DNA from: Flavobacteriia bacterium
Lineage (GTDB): Bacteria > Bacteroidota > Bacteroidia > Flavobacteriales_D > Crocinitomicaceae
Reading direction: 5' to 3'
Assembly (NCBI GenBank): GCA_947446925.1
Contig: CANFHU010000004.1
Span: forward strand, 1-64,000
DNA: 64,000 nt
Made by a program: the position numbers and the translations under genes. The notes under the pieces were generated by a model. It searched no databases, was not told the DNA's origin, and was given only the letters and a program-made list of their open reading frames with translations. Below, piece after piece: positions 3,033 to 20,522 of the stretch. Positions within the stretch are counted from its first letter, which is position 1; each line of letters starts with the position of its first letter.

Positions 3033-5249
3033 ATGAAAAAAATAGCATTACTACTTCTTTGTTTTGTAATTTCCTTACAAAGTAGTGCGGAAGAATCTCC
3101 GAAATTAAAACGAGCAGAAAATTTGTTTGCACATTTTGCCTATAAAGAAGCAATTGATCTTTACCAAGAATTGTATGCGCAACAAATAGATTTGCAAAAA
3201 GTGACCGAAAGATTAGCAAATAGTTATCGTTTTATCAATGATACACGAAATGCAGAAATTTGGTATGAAAAATTTATTGCATTTGGAAAATATTCAGCGA
3301 ACGATGTATTCTACTATTCATTAGCATTACGATCGAATGGTAAAACAAAACTTGCCGATGATTGGATGTTGATCTTTAAACAATTAAACTCTTCCGATTC
3401 GCGCGCATTGGCTTTGGATTATAAGGAAAATAAATTACGTGAGATAGAAAGTAAAAGATCCAATTTTGCAATTCGTAATCTGCCATTTAATACCGAAGGA
3501 ATTGAATTTTCGCCAGCATTTGTGCAGGACAAACAATTAGCATTTGTGGCTGCGGATCCAAATCAACTTGTAATTAAGCGTGAATTTTCTTGGAATCAAA
3601 CGCCATTTTTAGATGTGTATTTGGTAGATAAATCTTCAGACACGACGTTTGGAACACCTTTTCCAATTGCAGGAAAAGTAAATAGTAAATACCATGATGG
3701 ACCAGCAACCTTCAATCAGTCTGGGGACATGATGTTTTTTACACGAAATAATTATTTGAAAAACAAAAAATTAAGTAGTGATGGCGTTTTGAAATTAACT
3801 TTATTACGCGCAGAAAAAAATGCGAAAGGAAAATGGAAAAACATACATGAGGTAGATTTAGGAACCAAAGAGTATTCCGTTGGACATCCTTCGATGAGTG
3901 CGGATGGTACAAAACTTGTGTTTACATCGGATATGCCAGGATCTATTGGTGGGACAGATATTTGGATGATTACAAAATCCGGAAATGCTTGGAGTAAACC
4001 GATTAATTTAGGTCCACAGGTGAATACCGAAGGGAATGAAATGTTTCCATATATAGCTACAAATGGAGATATGTTTTTTGCATCCAATGGACATATAGGT
4101 CTAGGAGGTCTTGATATTTTTTATGCACCTTTAAAAAATAATGACTATCGCAATGTTGTTAATTTAGGAGCAGGATTAAATTCACCACAAGATGATTTTG
4201 GGTTGATTGTTACATCCGATTTTACAAAAGGATATTTTACCTCTAACAGAGCAGGTGGTAAAGGAGACGATGACATTTATGCGGTATCTTTTTTAAAACC
4301 GATTCAGATTAAATTATTACACTTGACGTTAGAAGATAAATTGACTAAGAATCCAATTTTTCAAGCGACTGTAAAACTAAAAATCAACGAAAAAACATTG
4401 GATTATGTTTCGGATAGTTTAGGTAAAGTAGAACTTATCATTAACCCGTTAGACAAAATTAGTGCAACAATTTCTCGTGAAAATTTCTTTTCAATCGATC
4501 AGTTGTCTATTGCAAATGATAGTTCATACGTAACGATACATGAAGCAATACATTTGGTTTCGAACCAACAGTTAGTGTATACTACAAAGGTAGTTGACCA
4601 TACAACGAAAAACCCTTTGGATGGGGTTAAAGTAAGTGTGAAATCGCGTAAATATTATACTTCGTTAGTTACGGATGCTAATGGAAATTTATTTCTAGAT
4701 CTTACCACCTTCAAAAAGGGGGATAAAATTCAATTAGACATTCGATTAGAAAAAGAAGGGTACCTAGGGAAAGAATTATTGATAACGAAAGTGATTGATA
4801 AACCAGGTATGTTGTCACTTGTGAACGAGAAGGTAATAAGCATGCATAAGTTAGAAGTTGGTTTAGAAATTGGTAAAGCGATCAAAATCAATCCAATTTA
4901 TTTTGATTATGGAAAAGATGCAATTCGTCCGGATGCTGCAACAGAATTAGATAAAATCGTTAAAATTTTGAAACGTCATCCAGAAATTGTGATTGAATTA
5001 GGATCGCATACGGATTGTAGAAGTAGTGTACGTTTTAACAATGATTTGTCCGATCGTAGAGCAAAAACTTCGGTACAATATTTAGTGGATAATGGAATTG
5101 CAGAAGATCGTTTGTATGGTAAAGGGTATGGTGAAAGTCGCTTGGTTAACAAATGTGCTTGTGAAGATCAACAGGCAGTAGAATGTTCGGAAGAACAACA
5201 CCAACAAAATCGTAGAACAGAATTTGTGATAAAGAAAATTCGCTTATAA
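3033..5249 (+). CDS. OmpA family protein with PD40 beta-propeller repeats
   Basis: The start is placed at 3033 (MKKIALLLLCFVISLQSSAEES) because it gives a signal peptide and follows the porP stop; a longer frame from 2973 would overlap porP. The 738-residue protein has an N-terminal TPR-like helical part, PD40/WD40-like beta-propeller motifs in the middle (SADGTKLVFTSD, then TSNRAGGKGDDDIY), carboxypeptidase-regulatory-like segments, and a C-terminal OmpA peptidoglycan-binding domain (IYFDYGKDAIRPDA, then LSDRRAKTSVQYLVDNGI). It resembles the OmpA/PD40 proteins encoded with PorP/SprF in T9SS loci. It probably ties the outer-membrane complex to peptidoglycan. A terminator follows at 5270. Confidence 0.93.
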   Translation: MKKIALLLLCFVISLQSSAEESPKLKRAENLFAHFAYKEAIDLYQELYAQQIDLQKVTERLANSYRFINDTRNAEIWYEKFIAFGKYSANDVFYYSLALRSNGKTKLADDWMLIFKQLNSSDSRALALDYKENKLREIESKRSNFAIRNLPFNTEGIEFSPAFVQDKQLAFVAADPNQLVIKREFSWNQTPFLDVYLVDKSSDTTFGTPFPIAGKVNSKYHDGPATFNQSGDMMFFTRNNYLKNKKLSSDGVLKLTLLRAEKNAKGKWKNIHEVDLGTKEYSVGHPSMSADGTKLVFTSDMPGSIGGTDIWMITKSGNAWSKPINLGPQVNTEGNEMFPYIATNGDMFFASNGHIGLGGLDIFYAPLKNNDYRNVVNLGAGLNSPQDDFGLIVTSDFTKGYFTSNRAGGKGDDDIYAVSFLKPIQIKLLHLTLEDKLTKNPIFQATVKLKINEKTLDYVSDSLGKVELIINPLDKISATISRENFFSIDQLSIANDSSYVTIHEAIHLVSNQQLVYTTKVVDHTTKNPLDGVKVSVKSRKYYTSLVTDANGNLFLDLTTFKKGDKIQLDIRLEKEGYLGKELLITKVIDKPGMLSLVNEKVISMHKLEVGLEIGKAIKINPIYFDYGKDAIRPDAATELDKIVKILKRHPEIVIELGSHTDCRSSVRFNNDLSDRRAKTSVQYLVDNGIAEDRLYGKGYGESRLVNKCACEDQQAVECSEEQHQQNRRTEFVIKKIRL

Positions 5250-11401: not shown

Positions 11402-12460
11402 CTAATCTCCGTCGTTGTCTGAGTAGGTGATTAAAATCCCAAATGCACTCACCATGTCCGTTTTTAATGCTATTGTATTGAAGTGAATCGCATTGTACAA
11501 ATCAATCATTTTCTGCGTATCTGTGTTTAATGCCGTTTCCAAACTAGTTGGTAATGCATCGATTTGGGTTAGAAACACTCCCCAATTGGTTTCAATGGTA
11601 GTGGCAGTAGTTGTTTTCGCTAAAGCTAGTAAATAGTCGTGCATGCTTTTCCCATCTTTCCCATTGCTACCTTTCCCTAAATAAATTTGCTGTAGGGCAA
11701 GAACATTTGCGCGTAATAGTTCTTTCCCGATTCCTGATTTTCTAGCTTCTAGTAAGGCAGGATTTTTTACATTTCCACTATTTGCACCAAGTGGATATCC
11801 AAGTTTGGTCCATTTTAATGTTTCGTAATCATGGATGTAGTTATTTACAACTAAGGAAAAAGGACTTGTGGATGCGTTACTTGTGCCATCTACAAATGCA
11901 GACCGGTATGTATTCCATTCCGTGCATGTTTTATCGATTTCTGCTTTCATTTTTAGGATTAACTCGCGCACATATACTTTTCGATTTAGAGTTGTCGTGA
12001 TATCGGTATATGCATTTTTTGAAAACAATAGATAATCCAAAGCAGGAAAACCGATAGCATCGTAATTGGATATGCTCGTTAAATTGTAATTTCCAGTATT
12101 AATATTTGTTTCAATTGCAAGGGTATCTGTTGGGAAAGTACCAAGACTCATCGCTAAATTTTGGTTCATTCCTGGTCCAAAATCAAACATTTTCACGTAT
12201 TGAAAACGAATATAGGCACGTTTCCATTGTGCTCTAATGGAATCAAGTTTTGTTTCGCTTGGTTGGTTTTCAAAAGCATTCCAACTAGTTACTAATTCGT
12301 CAACATGAGACTGTAAGGAAGCATATTCCGGTAAGATGTAATTATCCGCTAGTTGCGATAATAACTCCGTTTTTTTAAACGTGTCGTCTTTCATGCCGCC
12401 CATCTTATCCCTACAAGAGGAAAATAAGATGCAAATTGCGATGATCCAATAATATTTCAT
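11402..12460 (-). CDS. Imelysin family lipoprotein
   Basis: 352 residues with a lipoprotein signal (IIAICILFSSC, Cys 16). The helical domain carries imelysin-type blocks (LADNYILPEYASLQSHVDEL, the GxHxxE-equivalent region IGFPALDYLLFS, and a later MHDYLLALAKT). Imelysin-like proteins are surface or periplasmic proteins, often iron-regulated, related to the EfeO M75 domain. The classic GxH.xE site is not conserved here (GFPALD), as in other family members without peptidase activity. The gene follows the DUF4856 gene by 8 bp, so the two are surely co-transcribed. Together with the TonB receptor they suggest iron acquisition. Confidence 0.88.
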   Translation of the reverse strand: MKYYWIIAICILFSSCRDKMGGMKDDTFKKTELLSQLADNYILPEYASLQSHVDELVTSWNAFENQPSETKLDSIRAQWKRAYIRFQYVKMFDFGPGMNQNLAMSLGTFPTDTLAIETNINTGNYNLTSISNYDAIGFPALDYLLFSKNAYTDITTTLNRKVYVRELILKMKAEIDKTCTEWNTYRSAFVDGTSNASTSPFSLVVNNYIHDYETLKWTKLGYPLGANSGNVKNPALLEARKSGIGKELLRANVLALQQIYLGKGSNGKDGKSMHDYLLALAKTTTATTIETNWGVFLTQIDALPTSLETALNTDTQKMIDLYNAIHFNTIALKTDMVSAFGILITYSDNDGD

Positions 12461-12468
12461 GGTCGTTA

Positions 12469-13674
12469 TTATTTAGTTGCGTCTTTTGCTTGTTCCACCG
12501 TAAATCCAAATCGTGTAGCAATTTTTGCAGCGATCGTATCTAGTGCGGTATTAAGGTAATCCACATCGTACAAACCATTTGTACCTTTTAGTAAATCTGC
12601 AAGCATGCTGTCTACTTCTTCTTTGGAGAAATATGGCGCTTTCGTTGTAGGATTTTGTGTAAAACGTAAACACCAGATAAATCCATACCCTTCTGATAAA
12701 GCGTGGAATGCTGCTTTGCCGTTGTTTGTTGCTAATTTACTTTTTGCTTCACCAACTAAGTAATATACTGCTCTCACTGCAGGAACTTTGGATAATTCCG
12801 ATTTAATGATGGTAATTTGTGCATCACGTGTGGCATAGTCGGCATTCGAAATCGCAGCTCTACCTTGGATGAACGCTTTGGAAATCGCATCTTTTACCGT
12901 GTTGAAATTTGGATCTGCATTTACTTGATTGATATAGGAAGACCAGTATTTGTACACCGATGGATTAGCTGTAATATTATCATTTCCATAGATGTAACCA
13001 TATGCTTCATCCCAAGCATGTTCCATGGTCGTATATGTTTTTCCAGATTCTACTACTTTGTTTGTGTTGTTAGTTAGGTTTGAACCAGCATCTAATTTGT
13101 TTTTGCTCAGGTAGTTGTTAAGAATTTGATCTAGTAAACACGCACCCATCATCCCTTTTGCAAAAACTTGTTGTGGTTCTAAACCATTTGCATTGAAATA
13201 GCGTTTTTTCGTTCCATCCATATAATAGCCAGCAACACCAGCGCTTGCTTCTGTACTTCCGGCAGTTAGTACTTCCGCATCTTTGAATAAGGCTTTGAAA
13301 GTGTTGCTAATACTTGTTTGCTCAGCATTAATTCCAGAGAAATAATCAACAGAAGAAGCCGTTTTATCACTTAATTTTTTTCCGGAAGTATTCAATGAAT
13401 CCCCTAAAAATCCAGTTCCATCAAACATTGCTAACAGCGTCGCTTCGCTTACAGGGGTAGTTCCCCCCATCAAAGCGCTGATTTGGTCCAGCATTACCAA
13501 ACGCGTTTTTTGTCCGCTGTAGTCTACGGTAGAAATATTACTTGTGTTTTTGAATTCGTAGGTGCTTGGGATTGTGTAAGTATCCTTTGTAGGATTAATT
13601 GCTTTTTTTTCACAACTAGTTAAAAGCACAGATGCCATTGCAAGCGTAACTAGAAATATATTTATTGCTTTCAT
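12469..13674 (-). CDS. DUF4856 domain-containing lipoprotein
   Basis: 401 residues. The lipoprotein signal peptide (FLVTLAMASVLLTSC) is followed by the characteristic IPSTYEFKNTSNISTVDYSGQ opening of DUF4856 proteins and a long helical region (MEHAWDEAYGYIYG, then KAAFHALSEGYGFIWCLRF). The molecular function is not established. Genes of this family neighbour imelysin genes in Bacteroidota, and this one is the first gene of a four-gene operon with imelysin, HTTM and a TonB receptor. A well-formed promoter lies about 30-60 bp upstream. A role with the imelysin-like protein in metal binding at the outer membrane is an inference. Confidence 0.85.
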   Translation of the reverse strand: MKAINIFLVTLAMASVLLTSCEKKAINPTKDTYTIPSTYEFKNTSNISTVDYSGQKTRLVMLDQISALMGGTTPVSEATLLAMFDGTGFLGDSLNTSGKKLSDKTASSVDYFSGINAEQTSISNTFKALFKDAEVLTAGSTEASAGVAGYYMDGTKKRYFNANGLEPQQVFAKGMMGACLLDQILNNYLSKNKLDAGSNLTNNTNKVVESGKTYTTMEHAWDEAYGYIYGNDNITANPSVYKYWSSYINQVNADPNFNTVKDAISKAFIQGRAAISNADYATRDAQITIIKSELSKVPAVRAVYYLVGEAKSKLATNNGKAAFHALSEGYGFIWCLRFTQNPTTKAPYFSKEEVDSMLADLLKGTNGLYDVDYLNTALDTIAAKIATRFGFTVEQAKDATK

Positions 13675-13701
13675 CTTTATTTAGATTGATTTTAAATAAG
13701 A

Positions 13702-13732
13702 CAAAAGTACATGCAAGGAGTATAGTTGGCAA
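13702..13732 (-). promoter_or_regulatory. Bacteroidota-type promoter for the DUF4856/imelysin/HTTM/TonB operon
   Basis: On the minus strand a TTG (13732-13730) is separated by 20 bp from TACTTTTG (13709-13702), matching the -33 TTG and -7 TAnnTTTG consensus. It lies 28 bp upstream of the DUF4856 start. No convincing Fur box was recognised by eye. Confidence 0.6.
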
Positions 13733-13762
13733 TACCACAAAAAAGGTATTTTGTAACTAAAA

Positions 13763-13788
13763 AAATACTGCCTCGGAAAGCAGTATTT
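13763..13788 (-). terminator. Terminator after the GNAT-nitrilase gene
   Basis: Inverted repeat AAATACTGC / GCAGTATTT with an 8-nt loop. It is followed on the minus strand by an A/T-rich run. It separates the GNAT-nitrilase gene from the downstream iron-type operon. Confidence 0.75.
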
Positions 13789-13816
13789 TAAACGTATAAT
13801 TTTATTCGAGTAAATA

Positions 13817-15340
13817 TTAAGTTGTAGTTGTTTCTATTTTTTGCACTTTATAAATATCTAATCGTCTGTCTTTTAAGTTTGTAACACTTCCGTAATTATG
13901 AAGTTCGCGCAATAGCGATAAATCGATATCACAAATTAATATCATTTCGGTATTAGGTGTTGCTTCTGCTTTGATGCCATTGGTTGGAAAAGCAAAATCA
14001 CAGGGGGTATATACAGCAGATTGTGCAAATTGAATATCCATGTTGCTCACTTTGGGTAAGTTACCTACCGAGCCAGCAATCGCTACATAACATTCATTTT
14101 CAATAGCACGCGCTTGTGCACAACGTTTAACGCGGTGAAAACCATTTTGGGTATCGGTTAAGAATGGCACAAATAAAATATCCATTCCTTCATCTGCTAA
14201 AATTCTACTTAATTCTGGAAATTCAGAATCGTAGCAAATTAAGATTCCAATGCGACCACAATCGGTATCAAAGGTCTTTAGTTCATGACCACCAATCATT
14301 CCCCAGGCATATGATTCACTCGGAGTGATGTGAATTTTTCGATATTCTTCGATGCTTCCATCCCGACGACATAAATATCCTACATTGTATAAATGATCAT
14401 TTTCAATGTAAGGCATACTCCCGGTGATAATGTTAATATTATAGGAGATAGCAAATTCCTTAAATTTAGATTTAATTTTCTTGGTGTATTTGGCCAACAT
14501 ACGTATCGCTTCCGATTCAGGCAAATCATTGTATTCCGCCATTAATGGTGCGTTAAAGAATTCTGGAAACAAACAGAAATCACAACTGTAATCGGATACC
14601 GCATCGATAAAATATTCCATCTGTTCAAAAAGCGTATCTAATTTGCTCATTGGTCGCATTTGCCATTGAACTAAACCTAAACGTACATCTGTTTTTCGGA
14701 ATGATTTTTCAGTAGTGTAATAAATATTATTCCATTCGAGTAGCGTGGCATATTCCTTCGAACTTTTGTCTGTTGGCAAATATCCAGTCATTAACTTCAA
14801 CACGTGAAAATCATTACTTAACTGAAAGGTTAATACCGGGTCGTAAATTTCTTTCAATTTTACTTTATCGATATATTCTTTTGGGGTAATATTTTCTGCA
14901 AATTTTGAATAATTAGGAATTCTTCCGCCAAAAATAATTCCTTTTAAATTTAATTGTTCACACAATTGTTTTCGCTCATCGTACAACCTTCTACCTAATC
15001 TTAAACCGCGAAATTGTTGGATAATAAACACATCAATTCCATAAAGGATATTTCCGGTTGGGTTGTGGGTGCCGAATTTATATTGATCCGTTATTTCAAA
15101 ATAGGTATGGTCACGTTCTGCCAATTCATAATTCACTAAAATTGATAAGGCACATCCTGCAAATTCGTCATTGATAAATACTACTTTCTGTCCTTCTGGA
15201 AATTTTTTGAGTAATAACTTGATGTGTTTTTCTTTCCAATAGGAATTTTCCATATCGTCGTATGCACTTTGCATCGCGACTTTTAGTTTAGGATAATCTT
15301 CAATTTGTAAATTTCTAACTTCAACTTTATGTATGATCAT
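13817..15340 (-). CDS. Bifunctional GNAT N-acetyltransferase / carbon-nitrogen hydrolase
   Basis: 507 residues with two fused domains. The N-terminal ~210 residues form a GNAT acetyltransferase (GIDVFIIQQFRGLRLGRRLYDERK is the acetyl-CoA pyrophosphate loop). The C-terminal ~290 residues form a nitrilase-superfamily amidohydrolase with its triad in place: Glu in FCLFPEFFNAPL, Lys in YRKIHITPSE and Cys in RIGILICYDSEFPELSR. This fusion is known in many bacteria, but its substrate is not established. It is monocistronic here, with its own terminator. No promoter consensus was found upstream by eye. Confidence 0.93.
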   Translation of the reverse strand: MIIHKVEVRNLQIEDYPKLKVAMQSAYDDMENSYWKEKHIKLLLKKFPEGQKVVFINDEFAGCALSILVNYELAERDHTYFEITDQYKFGTHNPTGNILYGIDVFIIQQFRGLRLGRRLYDERKQLCEQLNLKGIIFGGRIPNYSKFAENITPKEYIDKVKLKEIYDPVLTFQLSNDFHVLKLMTGYLPTDKSSKEYATLLEWNNIYYTTEKSFRKTDVRLGLVQWQMRPMSKLDTLFEQMEYFIDAVSDYSCDFCLFPEFFNAPLMAEYNDLPESEAIRMLAKYTKKIKSKFKEFAISYNINIITGSMPYIENDHLYNVGYLCRRDGSIEEYRKIHITPSESYAWGMIGGHELKTFDTDCGRIGILICYDSEFPELSRILADEGMDILFVPFLTDTQNGFHRVKRCAQARAIENECYVAIAGSVGNLPKVSNMDIQFAQSAVYTPCDFAFPTNGIKAEATPNTEMILICDIDLSLLRELHNYGSVTNLKDRRLDIYKVQKIETTTT

Positions 15341-15558
15341 AGATTTTTCTTATAAATTTCTATGAATTCAGTTAGATAAACGTGCAGATTAATAAGTATT
15401 TACAATAAGTTAATGATTAAGTGTAGGTTGTTTAATGTTATTTTTATTTGCGTAATAATTTAATAACCTTTTAGCATTGCTTAAGAAACAATATACGTAG
15501 GTTGAGACTTGGTTTGGTGATTTGTGGAAAAGAAAATAGTGGAGGTGAGTAATTTTAA

Positions 15559-16476
15559 TTAGAGTTGAGACATAAAATGTAGCCAAGATTTTTCCCCATA
15601 TTCTGCCATACGAGAATAGGCGTTTGGTAAATCTCTTCTTGGAAATGAATGTGCAATACCAGCATGTATAGGTTGGTTATTCCATTTTAATTGTATAAAT
15701 GAAAATGCTAGACTGTTTTTGGTGATTCCGGTAAATTTTTGTTCTACCTCTTCAATTTCAATAATTGGTTTTACTTTTTGGTGATAAATTTTGAAAAGAG
15801 AACTAAAAATTCTGCTTCCAAATAAAACATATGTTCTAGGGTGTAATGCGATTGTATCCAGCAATTTCTCTACATAAGGAGCAATACTACTTGGTTCCAG
15901 TTCGAATGCTTTTACAATTTTATTCGTATCAATACTATTCGAACCGTAAGGAAATAACTCTAATTGTAATTTTTGATTCAGAACATTAACACTATTGAAT
16001 TGTTGAATCGTTTTATCGGCTAAATCTCCTTGCTTTAATTCAATACCGCTATTTTGCCAATGTAAAAGAAAACAAGCCTGTTTGTAATCGAAATTGTCGA
16101 ATTCATTTTTAATTACAAATCGATTGTAGGCATATTCAGTCCATTCTTGCACATAGATATGTAAAAAACGATTTATATCCATTTCTTGGGTTATATTTCG
16201 TTCTTGATAAAAAGAGCTTTTATTCCATTTCTGATTAAAAAATACCTCTGGGGTAGAGCTATCTCCAAGCCCAGCACCAGGGTTTAAATGAACAAACACC
16301 GTTTTAGCATCCAAATTAGCAGTTGGGTAATGTGGAATAGCATGATGACTAAAATAAATAGGAGAGCCAACCAATGCACTTAAACTCTTACTTAAATGAA
16401 TAGCGCGATTGATTTTCCCTGTTGATAAAAGATCATTTAGATCTTGATTTAGCAAATTATTATGTATGTGAGACAT
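15559..16476 (-). CDS. Uncharacterised protein, possible uracil-DNA-glycosylase-like fold
   Basis: 305 residues; I do not recognise the family. No signal peptide or membrane segment is visible. Two motifs stand out: VFVHLNPGAGLGDSS (about residues 81-95), which resembles the NPG loop of uracil-DNA glycosylase-like proteins, and a late HAGIAHSFPRRDLPNAYSRM, which sits where that superfamily has a conserved His loop. Catalysis is not demonstrated. It is the last of five minus-strand genes in the cluster facing the kinase operon, 12 bp after the coiled-coil gene, so it is probably co-transcribed with them. Confidence 0.6.
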   Translation of the reverse strand: MSHIHNNLLNQDLNDLLSTGKINRAIHLSKSLSALVGSPIYFSHHAIPHYPTANLDAKTVFVHLNPGAGLGDSSTPEVFFNQKWNKSSFYQERNITQEMDINRFLHIYVQEWTEYAYNRFVIKNEFDNFDYKQACFLLHWQNSGIELKQGDLADKTIQQFNSVNVLNQKLQLELFPYGSNSIDTNKIVKAFELEPSSIAPYVEKLLDTIALHPRTYVLFGSRIFSSLFKIYHQKVKPIIEIEEVEQKFTGITKNSLAFSFIQLKWNNQPIHAGIAHSFPRRDLPNAYSRMAEYGEKSWLHFMSQL

Positions 16477-16487
16477 ATTATTTGTAT

Positions 16488-16763
16488 TTAAGCTCTTGAA
16501 CGGATGTCTTGAATATATCTTCTTGTGCGTTCAATACTTTTTTTTAATGATTCAATGGAGTTTGAAATTTGAAGGTAAGCTGTTGTTTTAGATTTTCTTA
16601 TTTGTTCCTTTTTTTTTGAATCAGTCGTATTTTTTAATTCTCGCGCAGTTCGTTCAGCGACTCTCTTTTTTTCATCTCTGTATCTTTGTGTTTCTCTCTT
16701 TAGTCCTTCAATCTGTTTTTTATAGGATTCGATGGATTGTTTTTGACTAGCTGTTAATGCCAT
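16488..16763 (-). CDS. Small highly charged coiled-coil protein
   Basis: 91 residues, almost wholly predicted helix: Lys/Arg/Glu/Gln-rich heptads (KKQIEGLKRETQRYRDEKKRVAERTARELKN) followed by a second helix (SIESLKKSIERTRRYIQDIRSRA). No signal or membrane segment. Family not recognised. It lies 24 bp after the preceding cluster gene and 11 bp before the 305-residue gene, so it is in the same transcription unit. It may be an adaptor or multimerising partner; this is inference. Confidence 0.6.
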   Translation of the reverse strand: MALTASQKQSIESYKKQIEGLKRETQRYRDEKKRVAERTARELKNTTDSKKKEQIRKSKTTAYLQISNSIESLKKSIERTRRYIQDIRSRA

Positions 16764-16787
16764 GGTTTTAAAATTTAATTTATGAAA

Positions 16788-17129
16788 TTATGATATAATA
16801 AAGTTGGACCCTTTTTGTGCATCATTAAATTCAAGTAAAATGGTTTTAATTTTTTTTGCGTCACTTTTCGATAGGCAATAGACAGAAAGTGAACCACCTA
16901 CCACTTTAATATGTATGTCTGCTCCGATGAGGTGTTGATCGATTTTAATGGAGCGTACGCGCTTGAAGTTTACGACATTTTCATCCACCCCTATTAAAAA
17001 TGAATTCCGTTTTTTAACTTCTATCGTTTCTTTTGCTAGGTCTATCGTAATGTGCCAAGGGTTCACTACATGCGCACCTTTGCCGTTCATTACTAATGCA
17101 TCTTTTGCCGAAGAAAAATGATATTTCAT
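16788..17129 (-). CDS. Small protein with PH-like beta-rich character
   Basis: 113 residues. A run of alternating strands (HITIDLAKETIEVKKRN, FKRVRSIKIDQHLIGADIHIKV, GSLSVYCLS) ends in a helix (KSDAKKIKTILLEFNDAQKG). The order strand-rich core then C-terminal helix resembles small bacterial PH-like domains, but I do not recognise a family. There is no signal peptide. A 23-nt motif shared with another leader of this cluster lies just upstream (17148-17170). Role unknown. Confidence 0.55.
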   Translation of the reverse strand: MKYHFSSAKDALVMNGKGAHVVNPWHITIDLAKETIEVKKRNSFLIGVDENVVNFKRVRSIKIDQHLIGADIHIKVVGGSLSVYCLSKSDAKKIKTILLEFNDAQKGSNFIIS

Positions 17130-17147
17130 GGAATAAGGGAATTATTG

Positions 17148-17170
17148 CCTACTCTATTAGGGATTTTCGG
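17148..17170 (-). promoter_or_regulatory. Copy 1 of a 23-nt leader motif
   Basis: In the gene direction it reads CCGAAAATCC then AGAGTAGG, ending about 18 nt upstream of the ATG at 17129. Twenty of 23 bases match the motif at 17536-17558 in another leader of the cluster. It could be an RNA or DNA regulatory site. Confidence 0.5.
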
Positions 17171-17185
17171 CATACCTCCCGTCTT

Positions 17186-17512
17186 TTATAAATGCTTGTA
17201 TTTTTCTTCTTGATATGTTTTTTTACTTTCAGATAAAGTAGAACTATCTTTAGCAAGAACCTGGTCATTTGGGCTTGCAACTTGTACTTTTAAACCGGTT
17301 GCTTTCGTGAAGTTTTCCTCAAAATTTCCAACTTTCATGTTTGAATTTGCTTTAAATTCTTCTACTTTTTTCTCGGATAGACTTGCCAATGTTGCGCTAT
17401 CATCCGCAAACTTACTTCCTTTATATACGCGCAAGGTTAAACCAAAAGATTCTTTAAATTTTGCTTTTAAAGTCTTAACCTGCATTCTTCCGCTGATTGC
17501 TAATTCACCCAT
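17186..17512 (-). CDS. Small protein made of two diverged ~36-residue repeats
   Basis: 108 residues. Residues about 10-46 (MQVKTLKAKFKESFGLTLRV, then KFADDSATLASL) and about 59-96 (MKVGNFEENFTKATGLKVQV, then VLAKDSSTLSE) share the pattern M-K-V-x-x-F-x-x-x-F-x-x-x-x-G-L-x-x-x-V and end in D-S-x-T-L. The protein is therefore an internal duplication of one small alpha/beta unit. I recall similar small proteins in Bacteroidota but know no function. It lies between the tail-anchored gene and the PH-like gene, with spacers of 58 and 56 bp that each carry the same 23-nt motif. Confidence 0.6.
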   Translation of the reverse strand: MGELAISGRMQVKTLKAKFKESFGLTLRVYKGSKFADDSATLASLSEKKVEEFKANSNMKVGNFEENFTKATGLKVQVASPNDQVLAKDSSTLSESKKTYQEEKYKHL

Positions 17513-17535
17513 AATAATTTGATTTTTAGTGTATT

Positions 17536-17558
17536 CCTACTCTTTTGTGGATTTTCGG
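17536..17558 (-). promoter_or_regulatory. Copy 2 of the 23-nt leader motif
   Basis: In the spacer between the tail-anchored gene and the 108-residue gene, about 23 nt upstream of the ATG at 17512. It shares CCGAAAATCC and AGAGTAGG with copy 1 at 17148-17170, with three mismatches. Confidence 0.5.
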
Positions 17559-17570
17559 ATTCTCCATTGT

Positions 17571-18191
17571 TTATTTGTTCAATACATATAAAGTGACCCC
17601 TAATAGTAGAATTATTAAAATAATTAACCACCAATAGTTTCTTGTCTTAGTTTGTTGTTGCATGCTTTCCAAAAGGGTAGGATTTAATACTTTTAAATTG
17701 TATTCTCCTTTATTAAACGCATCTTTTTTTTCTACTTTTACAACTCTAACTCCATGTTTTTCCACATGATTTATTAAGTTTTGTAAGTCATTTTCTCCTG
17801 TTTCAGTATCGCTTGATTCCCATAATTTGGATACCAAAATTTCTACGCCATCTGCAGTTTTAAATGTCTCCTCTTCCTGCGTAAAATGCGTACTTGTTAT
17901 ATCGAAACCTTGTTTTGTTATTTCGCCACGAATAGTTCCAGGTTGGAAAACTCCATAATTTTTAGTGGTAAAAGGCTTGAAAATAGATTTGAAGTTTTTA
18001 GGTGCGGATGGATTTAATGTATCTGGTAAAATTTCTTGCAGTTCAGTCAGTGTTATTTTCGGATACAAGGTGAAAATTGCATCCACCACACCTAATGCGG
18101 TACGATTCATTGCTTTGCCTGTAACTTCAACAACACCATTCTTCAATGCTTGGATTTGAGAATCGGATAATTTTTGATGAATTTTAATCAT
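17571..18191 (-). CDS. Uncharacterised C-terminally tail-anchored protein
   Basis: 206 residues. The first ~180 are soluble (ALGVVDAIFTLYPKITLTELQEILP, a helical opening; then NLINHVEKHGVRVVKVEKKDAFNKGEYNLKVLNP). They are followed by one C-terminal membrane helix (YWWLIILIILLLGVTLYVL) with only a short Asn-Lys tail, so the protein is a tail-anchored inner-membrane protein facing the cytoplasm. I do not recognise the family. It is the first gene of the five-gene minus-strand unit and is divergent from the regulator-kinase pair. The 138-bp intergenic region holds four 9-bp direct repeats. Confidence 0.6.
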   Translation of the reverse strand: MIKIHQKLSDSQIQALKNGVVEVTGKAMNRTALGVVDAIFTLYPKITLTELQEILPDTLNPSAPKNFKSIFKPFTTKNYGVFQPGTIRGEITKQGFDITSTHFTQEEETFKTADGVEILVSKLWESSDTETGENDLQNLINHVEKHGVRVVKVEKKDAFNKGEYNLKVLNPTLLESMQQQTKTRNYWWLIILIILLLGVTLYVLNK

Positions 18192-18244
18192 TTTCGAATC
18201 AATTTATACAAACAAAGTAATCAGTTTTACCTTAATTTTCATCC

Positions 18245-18281
18245 GTTCATTTTGTTCATTAAGTTCACTTTGTTCATTTTG
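18245..18281. repeat. Four tandem 9-bp repeats (GTTCATTTT) in the divergent promoter region
   Basis: GTTCATTTT (18245), GTTCATTAA (18254), GTTCACTTT (18263) and GTTCATTTT (18272) follow each other with an exact 9-bp period and a final G. The array lies between the divergent genes and runs into the -33 position of the plus-strand promoter, as an iteron-type operator would. Confidence 0.7.
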
Positions 18282-18311
18282 AAAATTATTGATTTACAAG
18301 GTGTACTTTTG
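18278..18311 (+). promoter_or_regulatory. Probable promoter of the regulator-kinase operon
   Basis: TACTTTTG (18304-18311) matches the TAnnTTTG -7 element. A TTTG at 18278-18281 sits 22 bp upstream, slightly farther than the usual 19-21 bp. It lies 18 bp before the start at 18330 and overlaps the last 9-bp repeat. Confidence 0.45.
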
Positions 18312-18329
18312 TGTTTATTTTTTTTTGAA

Positions 18330-18881
18330 ATGCTATCAAAGGTTATTATTCTTCATATTGAGAAAAAGTTCGGTAAAGAAATTCGATACCCTTCCGATTG
18401 TGATGCACTTTCAGAGGATGTTTTTTTACATACAAAACAAAAAATAAGCGTCTCCACCTTAAAAAGATTATTAGGATTTGTCAATGGTGTGCAGGATCCA
18501 CGACTATATACCCTAGATATATTGGCTAAATATTTAGGATATACGAATTGGGATGTTTACTTAGAAGAAATTAAATCCAGTAGTAGTTCTGAATTTTTTA
18601 ATGTTGAGCGTTTAGATGTTGAATCCTTAGCTGTAGAAACCAAAATCAAAGTAGCCTACGAGCCAAATAGAATTATCGAATTAAATTATATTGGAAATTT
18701 TAATTTTAAAATTGAATCTTCGGAGAATAGTAAATTACAAGTGGGTGATATAGTTAAGATTACTAACTTTGTGAAAAACTTTCCACTTCTTATCAGCGAA
18801 GTCAAAAGAAATGACCAAAATTTAGGTCAGTATCGTGCCGGTAAAAGTGGTGGATTAAGTGAAATTAAAATTATTGAATAA
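18330..18881 (+). CDS. Regulator-like protein of the kinase cluster (HTH-like N-terminus)
   Basis: The start is set at 18330 (MLSKVIILHIEKKFGKEIRY) because the longer open frame from 18174 would run through the promoter and overlap the divergent gene. 183 residues. The N-terminal ~75 residues (SDCDALSEDVF, then ISVSTLKRLLGFVNGVQDPRLYTLDILAKYLGY) look like a helix-turn-helix type module known in Bacteroidota proteins of unknown role. The C-terminal half is a small beta-barrel-like domain (LQVGDIVKITNFVKNFPLLISEV). Its last 23 bases overlap the kinase gene, so the two are translationally coupled. DNA binding, perhaps to the 9-bp repeats, is an inference. Confidence 0.65.
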   Translation: MLSKVIILHIEKKFGKEIRYPSDCDALSEDVFLHTKQKISVSTLKRLLGFVNGVQDPRLYTLDILAKYLGYTNWDVYLEEIKSSSSSEFFNVERLDVESLAVETKIKVAYEPNRIIELNYIGNFNFKIESSENSKLQVGDIVKITNFVKNFPLLISEVKRNDQNLGQYRAGKSGGLSEIKIIE

Positions 18882-20274
18882 TTTACCTTCCATAGATTCT
18901 GATTTTTCTGATTTTGAAAAGGATACTATCTACAGTATACATTTTGACCCAAAACAGATCACCAAAACGCTTGTTCAAGCATCGAAGTATAGTGCAACGT
19001 TTAAATTTAAGTCGCATAATAAATGGCTATGTGTTAAATCATTAAATGATGAATATGTAACAAATGGCATGTATGTAGATACATTTGAAAATGAATTTAC
19101 GATTGGTTTCGAATTAAATCATCCCAACATAATTCAATATTACAAATTAGTCAAAACAGTAGATACTGTATATATTCTTAAAGAATATGTTGATGGTATA
19201 GCATTGAAAGATTATCTTTTACAATTTACCTCAACTACCACCTTTTTTTCGGCGCTTCATGCTATTTTATTGCAATTAATAGATGTGTTACACTATTTAC
19301 ATTCGAAACAGATTTATCATCTGGATGTGAAGCCTGCCAATATTTTAATAACGAGTAAAGGACAGAATGTCAAATTGATAGATTTTGGGTTATCTACGCG
19401 CGATAATCACGATTATTACCCTGCAGGCACGAAAAATTATTCTTCGCCAGAACAACGGAAATCTACACGTATTATTGATGGGAGAAGTGATATTTATGCG
19501 CTAGGGAAGACATTGGACGCATTAATTTCTTTGCCAAAAAGAAAAGGAATTCTCTACTTTTTATATTGGATAAAATTTAAATGGCTAGTAAAAAACTGTA
19601 TCTCTGAAAGTCAAGCCAATCGATTCCATCGCACGACAGATATCGCACGTTTCCTCAAAAGATTTTCGCTGGTAAAGTATACCGTAATTTTTCTTTGTTG
19701 TATGGCTGTCAGTGTATATTTTGTAGCAAAATCCATTGAAGATAAAGTGGAGCCACCAATAGTTACCCAATTACAAATGCACACGGAAAAAACCCATAAA
19801 CCAGGTGTAAATGGAAACTTAAAATTTAATAAACCGCTACAAAATAAGCATCCCATTTTTGAGGATGCACGCACAAAAAAGGTTCAAAATGATTCTACGT
19901 TTCAGCGAACAAACACTAGGAGTAAAGCAGTAGTGCCAATCCTTAGTTATTTAACGTTAAATGATATAGATTTGTTAGGTGTTCAAACTCCGAACTTGGC
20001 TTGTTTGACTGCTGAGGATAAATGGTTTTGTGAAAAATTATTAGATACATTACATAGTAATTTCATACATCAATTTGCTGCTAAACCTCAAAATATTGAT
20101 AGTAGTTTACTAGTTTTTAAGTATAAAAATCAACTCAATACATATGCTAGAAGACAATTGAATCAGTATAATTACAGTCGCTATAACAATGATAAAACCA
20201 AAACGTTGGCGCTTCGAGAGTATTTTGAATTACTAAAACAACAAGAATTTCAACGAATTAAAAAAGAGATTTAA
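18859..20274 (+). CDS. Membrane-anchored Ser/Thr protein kinase
   Basis: 471 residues from a GTG start inside the preceding gene; no in-frame ATG occurs before the kinase core. Hanks-type motifs: Lys in WLCVKSLNDE, Glu in FENEFTIGFEL, catalytic loop YHLDVKPANIL, DFG in LIDFGLST, SPE in place of APE (YSSPEQRK) and DIYALGKTL. The glycine-rich loop is not evident (SKYSATFKFKSH). A membrane helix follows at about residues 274-294 (YTVIFLCCMAVSVYFVA), then an extracytoplasmic ~175-residue helical domain without known repeats. It is probably a receptor kinase working with the upstream regulator and the divergent five-gene unit. Its substrate is unknown. Confidence 0.88.
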   Translation: MKLKLLNNLPSIDSDFSDFEKDTIYSIHFDPKQITKTLVQASKYSATFKFKSHNKWLCVKSLNDEYVTNGMYVDTFENEFTIGFELNHPNIIQYYKLVKTVDTVYILKEYVDGIALKDYLLQFTSTTTFFSALHAILLQLIDVLHYLHSKQIYHLDVKPANILITSKGQNVKLIDFGLSTRDNHDYYPAGTKNYSSPEQRKSTRIIDGRSDIYALGKTLDALISLPKRKGILYFLYWIKFKWLVKNCISESQANRFHRTTDIARFLKRFSLVKYTVIFLCCMAVSVYFVAKSIEDKVEPPIVTQLQMHTEKTHKPGVNGNLKFNKPLQNKHPIFEDARTKKVQNDSTFQRTNTRSKAVVPILSYLTLNDIDLLGVQTPNLACLTAEDKWFCEKLLDTLHSNFIHQFAAKPQNIDSSLLVFKYKNQLNTYARRQLNQYNYSRYNNDKTKTLALREYFELLKQQEFQRIKKEI

Positions 20275-20522
20275 TTAATTACATAGTATCAAATTTTCAC
20301 TAAATTCCCCACCATGAAAAATGCGTTTTTATTTAGTTTCAAAATCAGTTTGGTGATCTAATGTATTTTTTTGCTGGTTTTGTTTAGAAATAGGTGGTGT
20401 TATGTTTGCTGATTTTTTTCTGTACATACTATTTTAGAAGTTATTTCGTTTAAAAAGTAAGGGTAGATTAATAAAAATATTAAATAAAATAATAATTTTA
20501 TACACTTTAAAATTAGTTACTT

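What the first reader, a model, noticed from the sequence alone, without database searches (positions are those of the whole stretch)
15559..20274. Divergent seven-gene kinase module of unknown function
Five consecutive unrecognised genes (tail-anchored protein, two-repeat protein, PH-like protein, coiled-coil protein, UDG-fold-like protein) face a regulator-like gene fused by overlap to a membrane-anchored Ser/Thr kinase. The set is compact, has shared regulatory motifs, and mixes a membrane sensor kinase, a DNA-type fold and a tail-anchored protein. It could be a stress-signalling or anti-phage module not described before.
Basis: inference. Interest (0 to 1): 0.68.

Follow-up and report, generated by a model that had tools for sequence, protein, structure and literature searches.

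The report
Accessory membrane module beside kinase switch
Seven unnamed genes in a Bacteroidota chromosome turn out to be two separable parts sitting in one accessory block: a regulator with a membrane kinase, and a five-gene operon around a membrane-anchored protein, whose relatives elsewhere often sit beside ATPases of a kind known from anti-phage systems.

Summary
The seven genes are real, compact and at the stated coordinates. The block is accessory: near-identical sister genomes lack 4.9 kb here (about 15415-20299).

It is not one kinase module. The regulator-kinase pair recurs without the five genes in two same-genus genomes, with the same promoter plan: four 9-bp GTTCA repeats exactly 23 nt before TAnnTTTG, 3 of 3. 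The five-gene operon belongs to another recurrent neighbourhood: 19 loci carry the tail-anchored family F2, 16 of 19 with the two-repeat family F1, 9 of 19 with a KAP NTPase, 0 of 19 with a relative of this kinase.

Beyond the finding: long F2 forms end in an OmpA domain; the F1 model resembles tandem ubiquitin, weakly; two DUF805b RNAs precede F1 and the PH-like gene, and that RNA family shows a covarying second, pseudoknotted stem (30 of 32 sequences).

Best reading: a sensor cassette switching a membrane-tethered stress or conflict payload. Anti-phage function is plausible but untested; flanks show no clear defence enrichment.

The parts
15415..20299 (.). accessory block (approximate ends; right end could be 20334)
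   Evidence: absent from G009 and G001 by blastn/tblastn: 4885 bp here, 147 bp in G009
15559..16476 (-). F9, 305 aa, unnamed; not shown to be UDG
   Evidence: in 3 of 19 F2 loci
16488..16763 (-). F8, 91-aa coiled-coil protein
   Evidence: alignment; in 6 of 19 F2 loci
16788..17129 (-). F16, 113-aa bacterial-PH-like protein
   Evidence: bPH_2 E 0.0015 below cut-off; homologue over bPH_3 cut-off
17146..17181 (-). DUF805b RNA before F16 (16 nt to ATG)
   Evidence: Rfam RF02914, 40.9 bits, gathering 35.6; spacing
17186..17512 (-). F1, 108-aa two-repeat protein, possibly ubiquitin-like fold
   Evidence: in 16 of 19 F2 loci
17534..17567 (-). DUF805b RNA before F1 (21 nt to ATG)
   Evidence: RF02914, 41.4 bits; spacing
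17571..18191 (-). F2, 206-aa tail-anchored protein; long relatives carry OmpA
18245..18280 (.). 4 x 9 bp GTTCA(N4) direct-repeat array, presumed operator
   Evidence: same array in G002 and G004
18304..18311 (+). TACTTTTG, presumed -7 box of the regulator promoter
   Evidence: 23 nt after the array in 3 of 3 genomes; meaning of TAnnTTTG recalled
18330..18881 (+). REG, 183-aa HTH regulator of the F3 family
18859..20274 (+). KIN, 471-aa membrane Ser/Thr kinase (GTG start assumed)
   Evidence: PF00069 E 1.7e-32; motifs and hydrophobic stretch

Best explanation
A composite accessory cassette with a sensor part and a payload part. Shown: the block is present here and absent in sisters; the regulator-kinase pair is an independent two-gene unit with a conserved repeat array and promoter; the five-gene operon belongs to a separate conserved family of neighbourhoods. 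Inferred: the membrane kinase reads an envelope or infection signal with its C-terminal tail and phosphorylates REG; REG binds the repeat array and so controls its own operon and, from the same intergenic region, the divergent payload operon. The payload is a membrane-tethered complex: F2 anchors it in the inner membrane (to peptidoglycan in the OmpA forms), F1 and F8 act as adaptors, F16 adds membrane or protein binding, and F9 (in relatives a KAP NTPase and a UDG-like protein) is the executing part. DUF805b pseudoknots set translation of F1 and F16. The likeliest purpose is a conflict or stress response rather than housekeeping.
For: Empty site in G009 and G001. REG+KIN adjacent in G002 and G004 with the 4 x 9 bp array 23 nt before TAnnTTTG in 3 of 3. 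REG shares its HTH with the F3 regulators found in 7 of 19 F2 loci and 7 of 20 F1 loci, divergent from F2 in L007 and L030 as in the window. F3 genes often have 10-bp direct repeats upstream. F2 with F1 in 16 of 19 loci, KAP in 9 of 19, UDG-like F7 in 7 of 19. OmpA in long F2. KAP proteins match PDC-S20, PifA and QatA models. Patchy distribution.
Against: No binding, phosphorylation or phage test exists. The window genome and 7 same-genus genomes have no KAP, so the window version lacks the best defence-like partner. No relatives in viral contigs, plasmids or phages (F2; F1: by single sequence). Flanks of module loci show no clear defence excess over control. The array belongs to the REG-KIN unit wherever that unit occurs, so control of the divergent operon is not shown. 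The kinase matches PADLOC kinases mad6 and PD-T4-6, but only as kinases in general.
Confidence: 0.42

Rival explanations
1. Two unrelated accessory cassettes merely sit side by side in one insertion spot. The regulator-kinase pair controls itself or distant genes, and the payload has its own control.
For: Each part occurs without the other; the array is already complete at stand-alone copies of the pair.
Against: Both are missing together at the empty site; head-to-head arrangement of F3-family regulator and F2 also in L007 and L030; the array lies between both operons.
Confidence: 0.3
2. An envelope-maintenance or general stress operon, not a conflict system.
For: DUF805/DUF805b RNAs precede many membrane, lipoprotein and other genes unrelated to defence; OmpA domain in long F2; DUF481 family (F6) in 6 of 19 loci.
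Against: F2 in 1 of 395 phylum genomes and the empty site are unlike housekeeping; KAP and UDG-like partners elsewhere.
Confidence: 0.18
3. One dedicated seven-gene kinase-driven defence module.
For: Block-wise presence and absence; kinases occur in known defence systems (PADLOC kinase matches).
Against: 0 of 19 F2 loci and 0 of 20 F1 loci have a relative of this kinase, and the pair occurs without the five families.
Confidence: 0.1

Closest known systems
CapK/CapS kinase-regulator pairs beside immune operons (PMC13373217; abstract, outline and passages seen)
   Same: A kinase and a small DNA-binding regulator encoded together next to an operon they may control.
   Different: CapK is GHKL-type and CapS a STAS-wHTH protein binding palindromes (passages); here a Hanks-type membrane kinase, an HTH protein of another family, and direct repeats.
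KAP NTPase systems: PifA, Qat (PMC13279940, passages), PADLOC PDC-S20
   Same: KAP NTPase in 9 of 19 related F2 loci matches PDC-S20, PifA and QatA models.
   Different: No KAP in the window genome; partners F1, F2, F8 are not part of those systems as far as seen.
Zorya ZorB (PMC11890865, passages)
   Same: Long F2 forms have a membrane segment followed by an OmpA-type domain that matches ZorB models.
   Different: The match is to the OmpA part only; the large F2 cytoplasmic domain is different, and the window F2 has no OmpA domain.
DUF805b RNA, Rfam RF02914
   Same: Both window elements pass the gathering score.
   Different: Here they lie between genes of one operon; covariation supports a second, pseudoknotted stem that the nested model does not show.

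Membership tests
Hanks-type Ser/Thr protein kinase | PF00069 domain with HxDxKxxN and DFG | tested here: met
   E 1.7e-32; HLDVKPAN at 154, DFG at 175
DUF805b RNA (RF02914) | covariance-model score over gathering cut-off | tested here: met
   41.4 and 40.9 bits against 35.6
CapK/CapS | GHKL-type kinase with STAS-domain regulator | tested here: not met
   kinase is PF00069; REG shows no STAS family in Pfam at E up to 1
KAP NTPase defence system (PifA, Qat) | KAP NTPase in the locus | tested here: not met
   0 of 8 same-genus genomes including the window's; present in 9 of 19 relatives
Zorya | ZorA (MotA-like) with ZorB | tested here: not met
   no ZorA or ZorB match among the 8 window proteins at E up to 1, the kinase list being cut at 25 of 36
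Bacterial ubiquitin-like conjugation (Bil, CBASS Cap2 and similar) | E1, E2 or deubiquitinase partner | tested here: not met
   no such family among the 8 window proteins; defining partners recalled
Ubiquitin-like (beta-grasp) fold, F1 | beta-grasp fold | tested here: inconclusive
   Foldseek top hits di-ubiquitin/ISG15, E 7.7e-3 at best; VIA Z at most 4.6; sequence tests negative
Uracil-DNA glycosylase superfamily, F9 | UDG domain | tested here: inconclusive
   no Pfam hit, no PDB hit of that kind, hhalign 0.3%; fold not predicted
Bacterial PH domain, F16 | bPH profile score over cut-off | tested here: inconclusive
   19.2 bits against 22 in the window protein; 23.4 against 23 in L031, none in L030
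Anti-phage defence system | protection against phage | not testable with these tools
   needs a plaque assay

The most novel reading that the evidence does not exclude
A new family of Bacteroidota immune complexes: a non-conjugated tandem-ubiquitin-fold adaptor (F1) on a membrane- or peptidoglycan-tethered hub (F2) recruits interchangeable executors (KAP NTPase, UDG-like protein or F9), with interchangeable HTH sensors (kinase-coupled here) that read tandem 9-10 bp direct repeats, and pseudoknot RNAs that set the adaptor dose.
Probability: 0.22. Interest if true: 0.78.

Novelty: new variant of a known kind. Interest (0 to 1): 0.5.

Why it matters
It outlines a recurrent Bacteroidota neighbourhood (F1, F2, F8, F3, F5 with KAP NTPase and UDG-like protein) whose F1, F2, F3 and F5 families had no named match in the libraries scanned (Pfam and NCBIfam; PADLOC for F1, F2, F3 and F5), gives exact repeat and RNA elements to test, and shows a regulator-kinase unit parked beside an unrelated payload, as CapK/CapS units are. 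It also gives covariation evidence for a pseudoknot in an orphan Rfam element that sits just before translation starts.

Tried and rejected
Leader peptide: both window DUF805b copies read PKI..RVG in frame, but the other copies of the genome do not keep a frame, so a coding leader was rejected. DUF805 RNA as a module-specific element: rejected; none of the 20 DUF805 loci fetched shows an F-family gene within 4 kb of the RNA. UDG homology of the window 305-aa gene: not supported. Defence-island test: 132 flanking proteins of module loci against 132 control proteins from DUF805 loci (132 of 216 available, drawn at random) gave 51 against 18 PADLOC families at E up to 1e-10; the tables do not give the number of distinct members, AbiE models overlap, and by listed rows the member numbers look alike, so no enrichment is claimed. 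F2 fold: no match in PDB or viral models, which does not show a new fold. F1 against ubiquitin by sequence failed.

Counts mended on checking: F1 was first counted in 15 of 19 F2 loci from selected ORFs; a six-frame scan gives 16 of 19, because L033 has F1 on the other strand. The KAP model rings in 11 of 19, but in L033 and L043 it rings only in a 264-266-codon frame of the TerB-like protein, so I use 9 of 19. The 19 loci are partly redundant: L026, L028 and L029 are alike, L038 and L039 are alike.
Full report
Observation. The seven ORFs lie where stated. The minus-strand genes 17571-18191 (F2), 17186-17512 (F1), 16788-17129 (F16), 16488-16763 (F8) and 15559-16476 (F9) are separated by 58, 56, 24 and 11 nt and read as one operon (inference). 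The plus-strand pair 18330-18881 (REG) and 18859-20274 (KIN) overlaps by 23 nt. The kinase is clear (PF00069, E 1.7e-32) and matches kinase models in NCBIfam, PADLOC (mad6, PD-T4-6) and PHROGs, as kinases in general. The other six proteins have no match over a curated cut-off; the coiled-coil F8 collects weak coiled-coil matches.

The block is accessory. In sister genomes G009 and G001, whose GNAT-nitrilase protein is 98-99% identical to the window's, the order is nitrilase, 139-aa gene, the 20523 homologue, 249-aa gene, katG, oxyR, and none of the seven genes is found in the stretch. Nucleotide alignment puts the difference at about window 15415-20299: 4885 bp here against 147 bp in G009; the right edge rests on a short 39-bp match and could be 20334. 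The window itself keeps only remnants of the 139-aa gene. F1 by single-protein search is in 5 of 119 relatives, the own genome included, and not in G001, G008 or G009.

It is two parts. REG matches over its whole length only in the own genome, G002 and G004 (49-50% identity); 14 further genomes of 119 match in the N-terminal part at E up to 1e-5. In G002 and G004 a KIN homologue (32-34%) follows directly. Neither contig (about 9.7 and 9.6 kb) has F1, F2, F8, F9 or F16 in six frames, and F1 was not found in these genomes, which are only 59% and 76% complete. All three copies carry four 9-bp GTTCA(N4) repeats with TAnnTTTG exactly 23 nt after them; 0, 2 and 0 of 300 shuffles reach the array score. 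That TAnnTTTG is the Bacteroidota -7 element is recalled. In the window the array lies between the two divergent operons. F3-type regulators of related loci instead often have 10-bp direct repeats upstream: 9 of 9 matching positions in L007, L010 (second gene), L030, L108 (second gene), L112 and L115, 8 of 9 in L010, L106 and L108 (first genes), among 16 F3 genes looked at.

The payload family. A scan of the species-genome collection with the F2 alignment gave 19 confirmed loci from 220 pattern stretches; it reaches only genes that keep the two peptide patterns used. A draw of 395 phylum genomes gave only the window's own. Six-frame counts in the 19 loci: F1 16, F8 6, F9 3, F16 2, F3 7, F5 8, F6 (DUF481) 6, UDG-like F7 7, KAP NTPase 9, relative of KIN 0. 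Several loci are cut by contig ends and some are close relatives. F7 of L040 is UDG by Pfam (E 1e-6) and the KAP protein of L040 is PF07693 (E 9e-36). Eight F2 proteins are long (359-383 aa); the one scanned has an OmpA domain (L035, E 2.9e-22) after a hydrophobic segment and the other seven align with it, which places the F2 domain in the cytoplasm (inference). F1 by profile is in 67 of 299 order genomes. Of 20 such loci fetched, 12 hold another of these families and 8 (L116, L117, L119-L124) hold F1 alone in ordinary surroundings; 0 of 20 hold a relative of KIN. No KAP is in the window's genome or 7 other same-genus genomes, so the window version is a reduced or alternative form.

Structure. 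The F1 model (mean pLDDT 86, pTM 0.73) has beta-alpha-beta repeats. Its best PDB matches are linear di-ubiquitin and ISG15 entries (E 7.7e-3 and worse, probability up to 0.89); single ubiquitins match with 2.3-2.4 A over about 49 columns, probability up to 0.97 but E above 0.1. VIA-align gives Z at most 4.6, the top row being a FERM-containing myosin tail and most others ubiquitins; Z under 8 may mean little. Sequence comparison fails. 'Ubiquitin-like' is a lead, not a result. The F2 model (pLDDT 86) has no match.

RNA. Two DUF805b elements sit between payload genes, 21 and 16 nt before the ATG of F1 and F16. Of 17 F2 loci scanned at the gathering score, four (L034, L035, L041, L043) hold seven DUF805 or DUF805b elements; with the window that is nine elements, five of them before an intact F1 (window, L034, L035, L041, L043). 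The other 13 have none, nor have L007-L011 at E up to 0.1. The families are not specific to the module: DUF805b has matches at E up to 1e-6 in 70 of 149 relatives, over the cut-off in 54, and DUF805 in 41 of 247 phylum genomes, before varied genes. In 26 of 29 DUF805b loci read, the first plausible ATG lies 14-25 nt downstream in 25 and at 0 nt in one; three did not match the pattern used. In 32 distinct sequences the base before CC and the base after GG form a Watson-Crick pair in 30, of all four types, and a G-U pair in 2 (shuffle mean 11.5, maximum 21 in 20,000; the shuffle ignores relatedness). This supports a 3-bp second stem, hence an H-type pseudoknot, next to the stem of the Rfam model. 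The paper that I recall as describing this RNA (2017) is not held, so I cannot say whether the pseudoknot is already drawn there.

Mechanism. I propose a sensor cassette (KIN and REG with its array) driving a membrane-tethered payload. The closest published logic is CapK/CapS (PMC13373217, abstract and passages): a kinase and its substrate regulator control an adjacent immune operon; the proteins here belong to other families. KAP partners in relatives point towards PifA/Qat-like conflict systems (QatA as a KAP NTPase, PMC13279940 passages). Against defence: F2 not found in viral contigs, plasmids or phages, F1 not in plasmids or phages by single sequence, and no clear defence-gene excess in flanks.

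Literature. Searches for DUF805b; DUF805 with RNA motif; KAP NTPase with antiphage; ubiquitin-like, KAP, Bacteroidetes, OmpA and conflict systems (4 of 5); candidate structured RNAs with Bacteroidetes and pseudoknot; KAP P-loop with uracil-DNA glycosylase and Bacteroidetes; Bil/ISG15-like; tail-anchored, OmpA, KAP NTPase and Zorya (3 of 6); and PifA with KAP listed nothing that, from titles, abstract starts and the passages opened in four papers (PMC7159879, PMC13373217, PMC11890865, PMC13279940), describes this gene set. Only the first listed papers were shown, and the library lacks most subscription journals.

Noticed in passing
G000:C31:1627-1659 and 3053-3085, C13:13123-13156 (L023, L024): Other DUF805b elements of the same genome, two over the cut-off and one (C31:3053) below it; C31:3053 and C13:13123 lie just upstream of genes for apparently exported proteins.
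   Followed up: partly
window 20300-20520: Remnants of a 139-aa gene that is intact in G009, G001 and G008; the 249-aa gene found next to katG in G009 and G001 is missing here.
   Followed up: partly
L034, L040, L108, L110, L112, L118: F5, a 55-57-aa protein (FGFKxKxGxSFSxxRLLGIS) in 8 of 19 F2 loci, without a Pfam or NCBIfam match.
   Followed up: partly
upstream of F3 genes in L007, L010, L030, L106, L108, L112, L115: Pairs of 10-bp direct repeats 50-92 nt before the regulator start, of differing sequence from locus to locus: likely operators of an undescribed HTH family.
   Followed up: partly
L009:1727-3339: F1 and F8 beside a 264-aa membrane protein, without F2 on this short contig.
   Followed up: no
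L119-L124: Remote F1 relatives in constant chromosomal surroundings (L119-L122 alike; L123 and L124 beside what I read as cytochrome oxidase genes), so the F1 superfamily is wider than the module.
   Followed up: no
L041:2122-2300: A DUF805 element precedes a short F1-like reading frame that stops early; apparently a degraded copy.
   Followed up: no
L127, L141, L144 (DUF805 loci): DUF805 RNAs precede short proteins starting MADLLAGAYLAKGTIGNVG or MSDLLAGAYLAKGTIGNVG, which I read from memory as inclusion-body-type proteins.
   Followed up: no
window 11402-15340: Two adjacent genes read as imelysin-like lipoproteins and a GNAT-nitrilase fusion next to the block (names by my reading); they look ordinary.
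   Followed up: no
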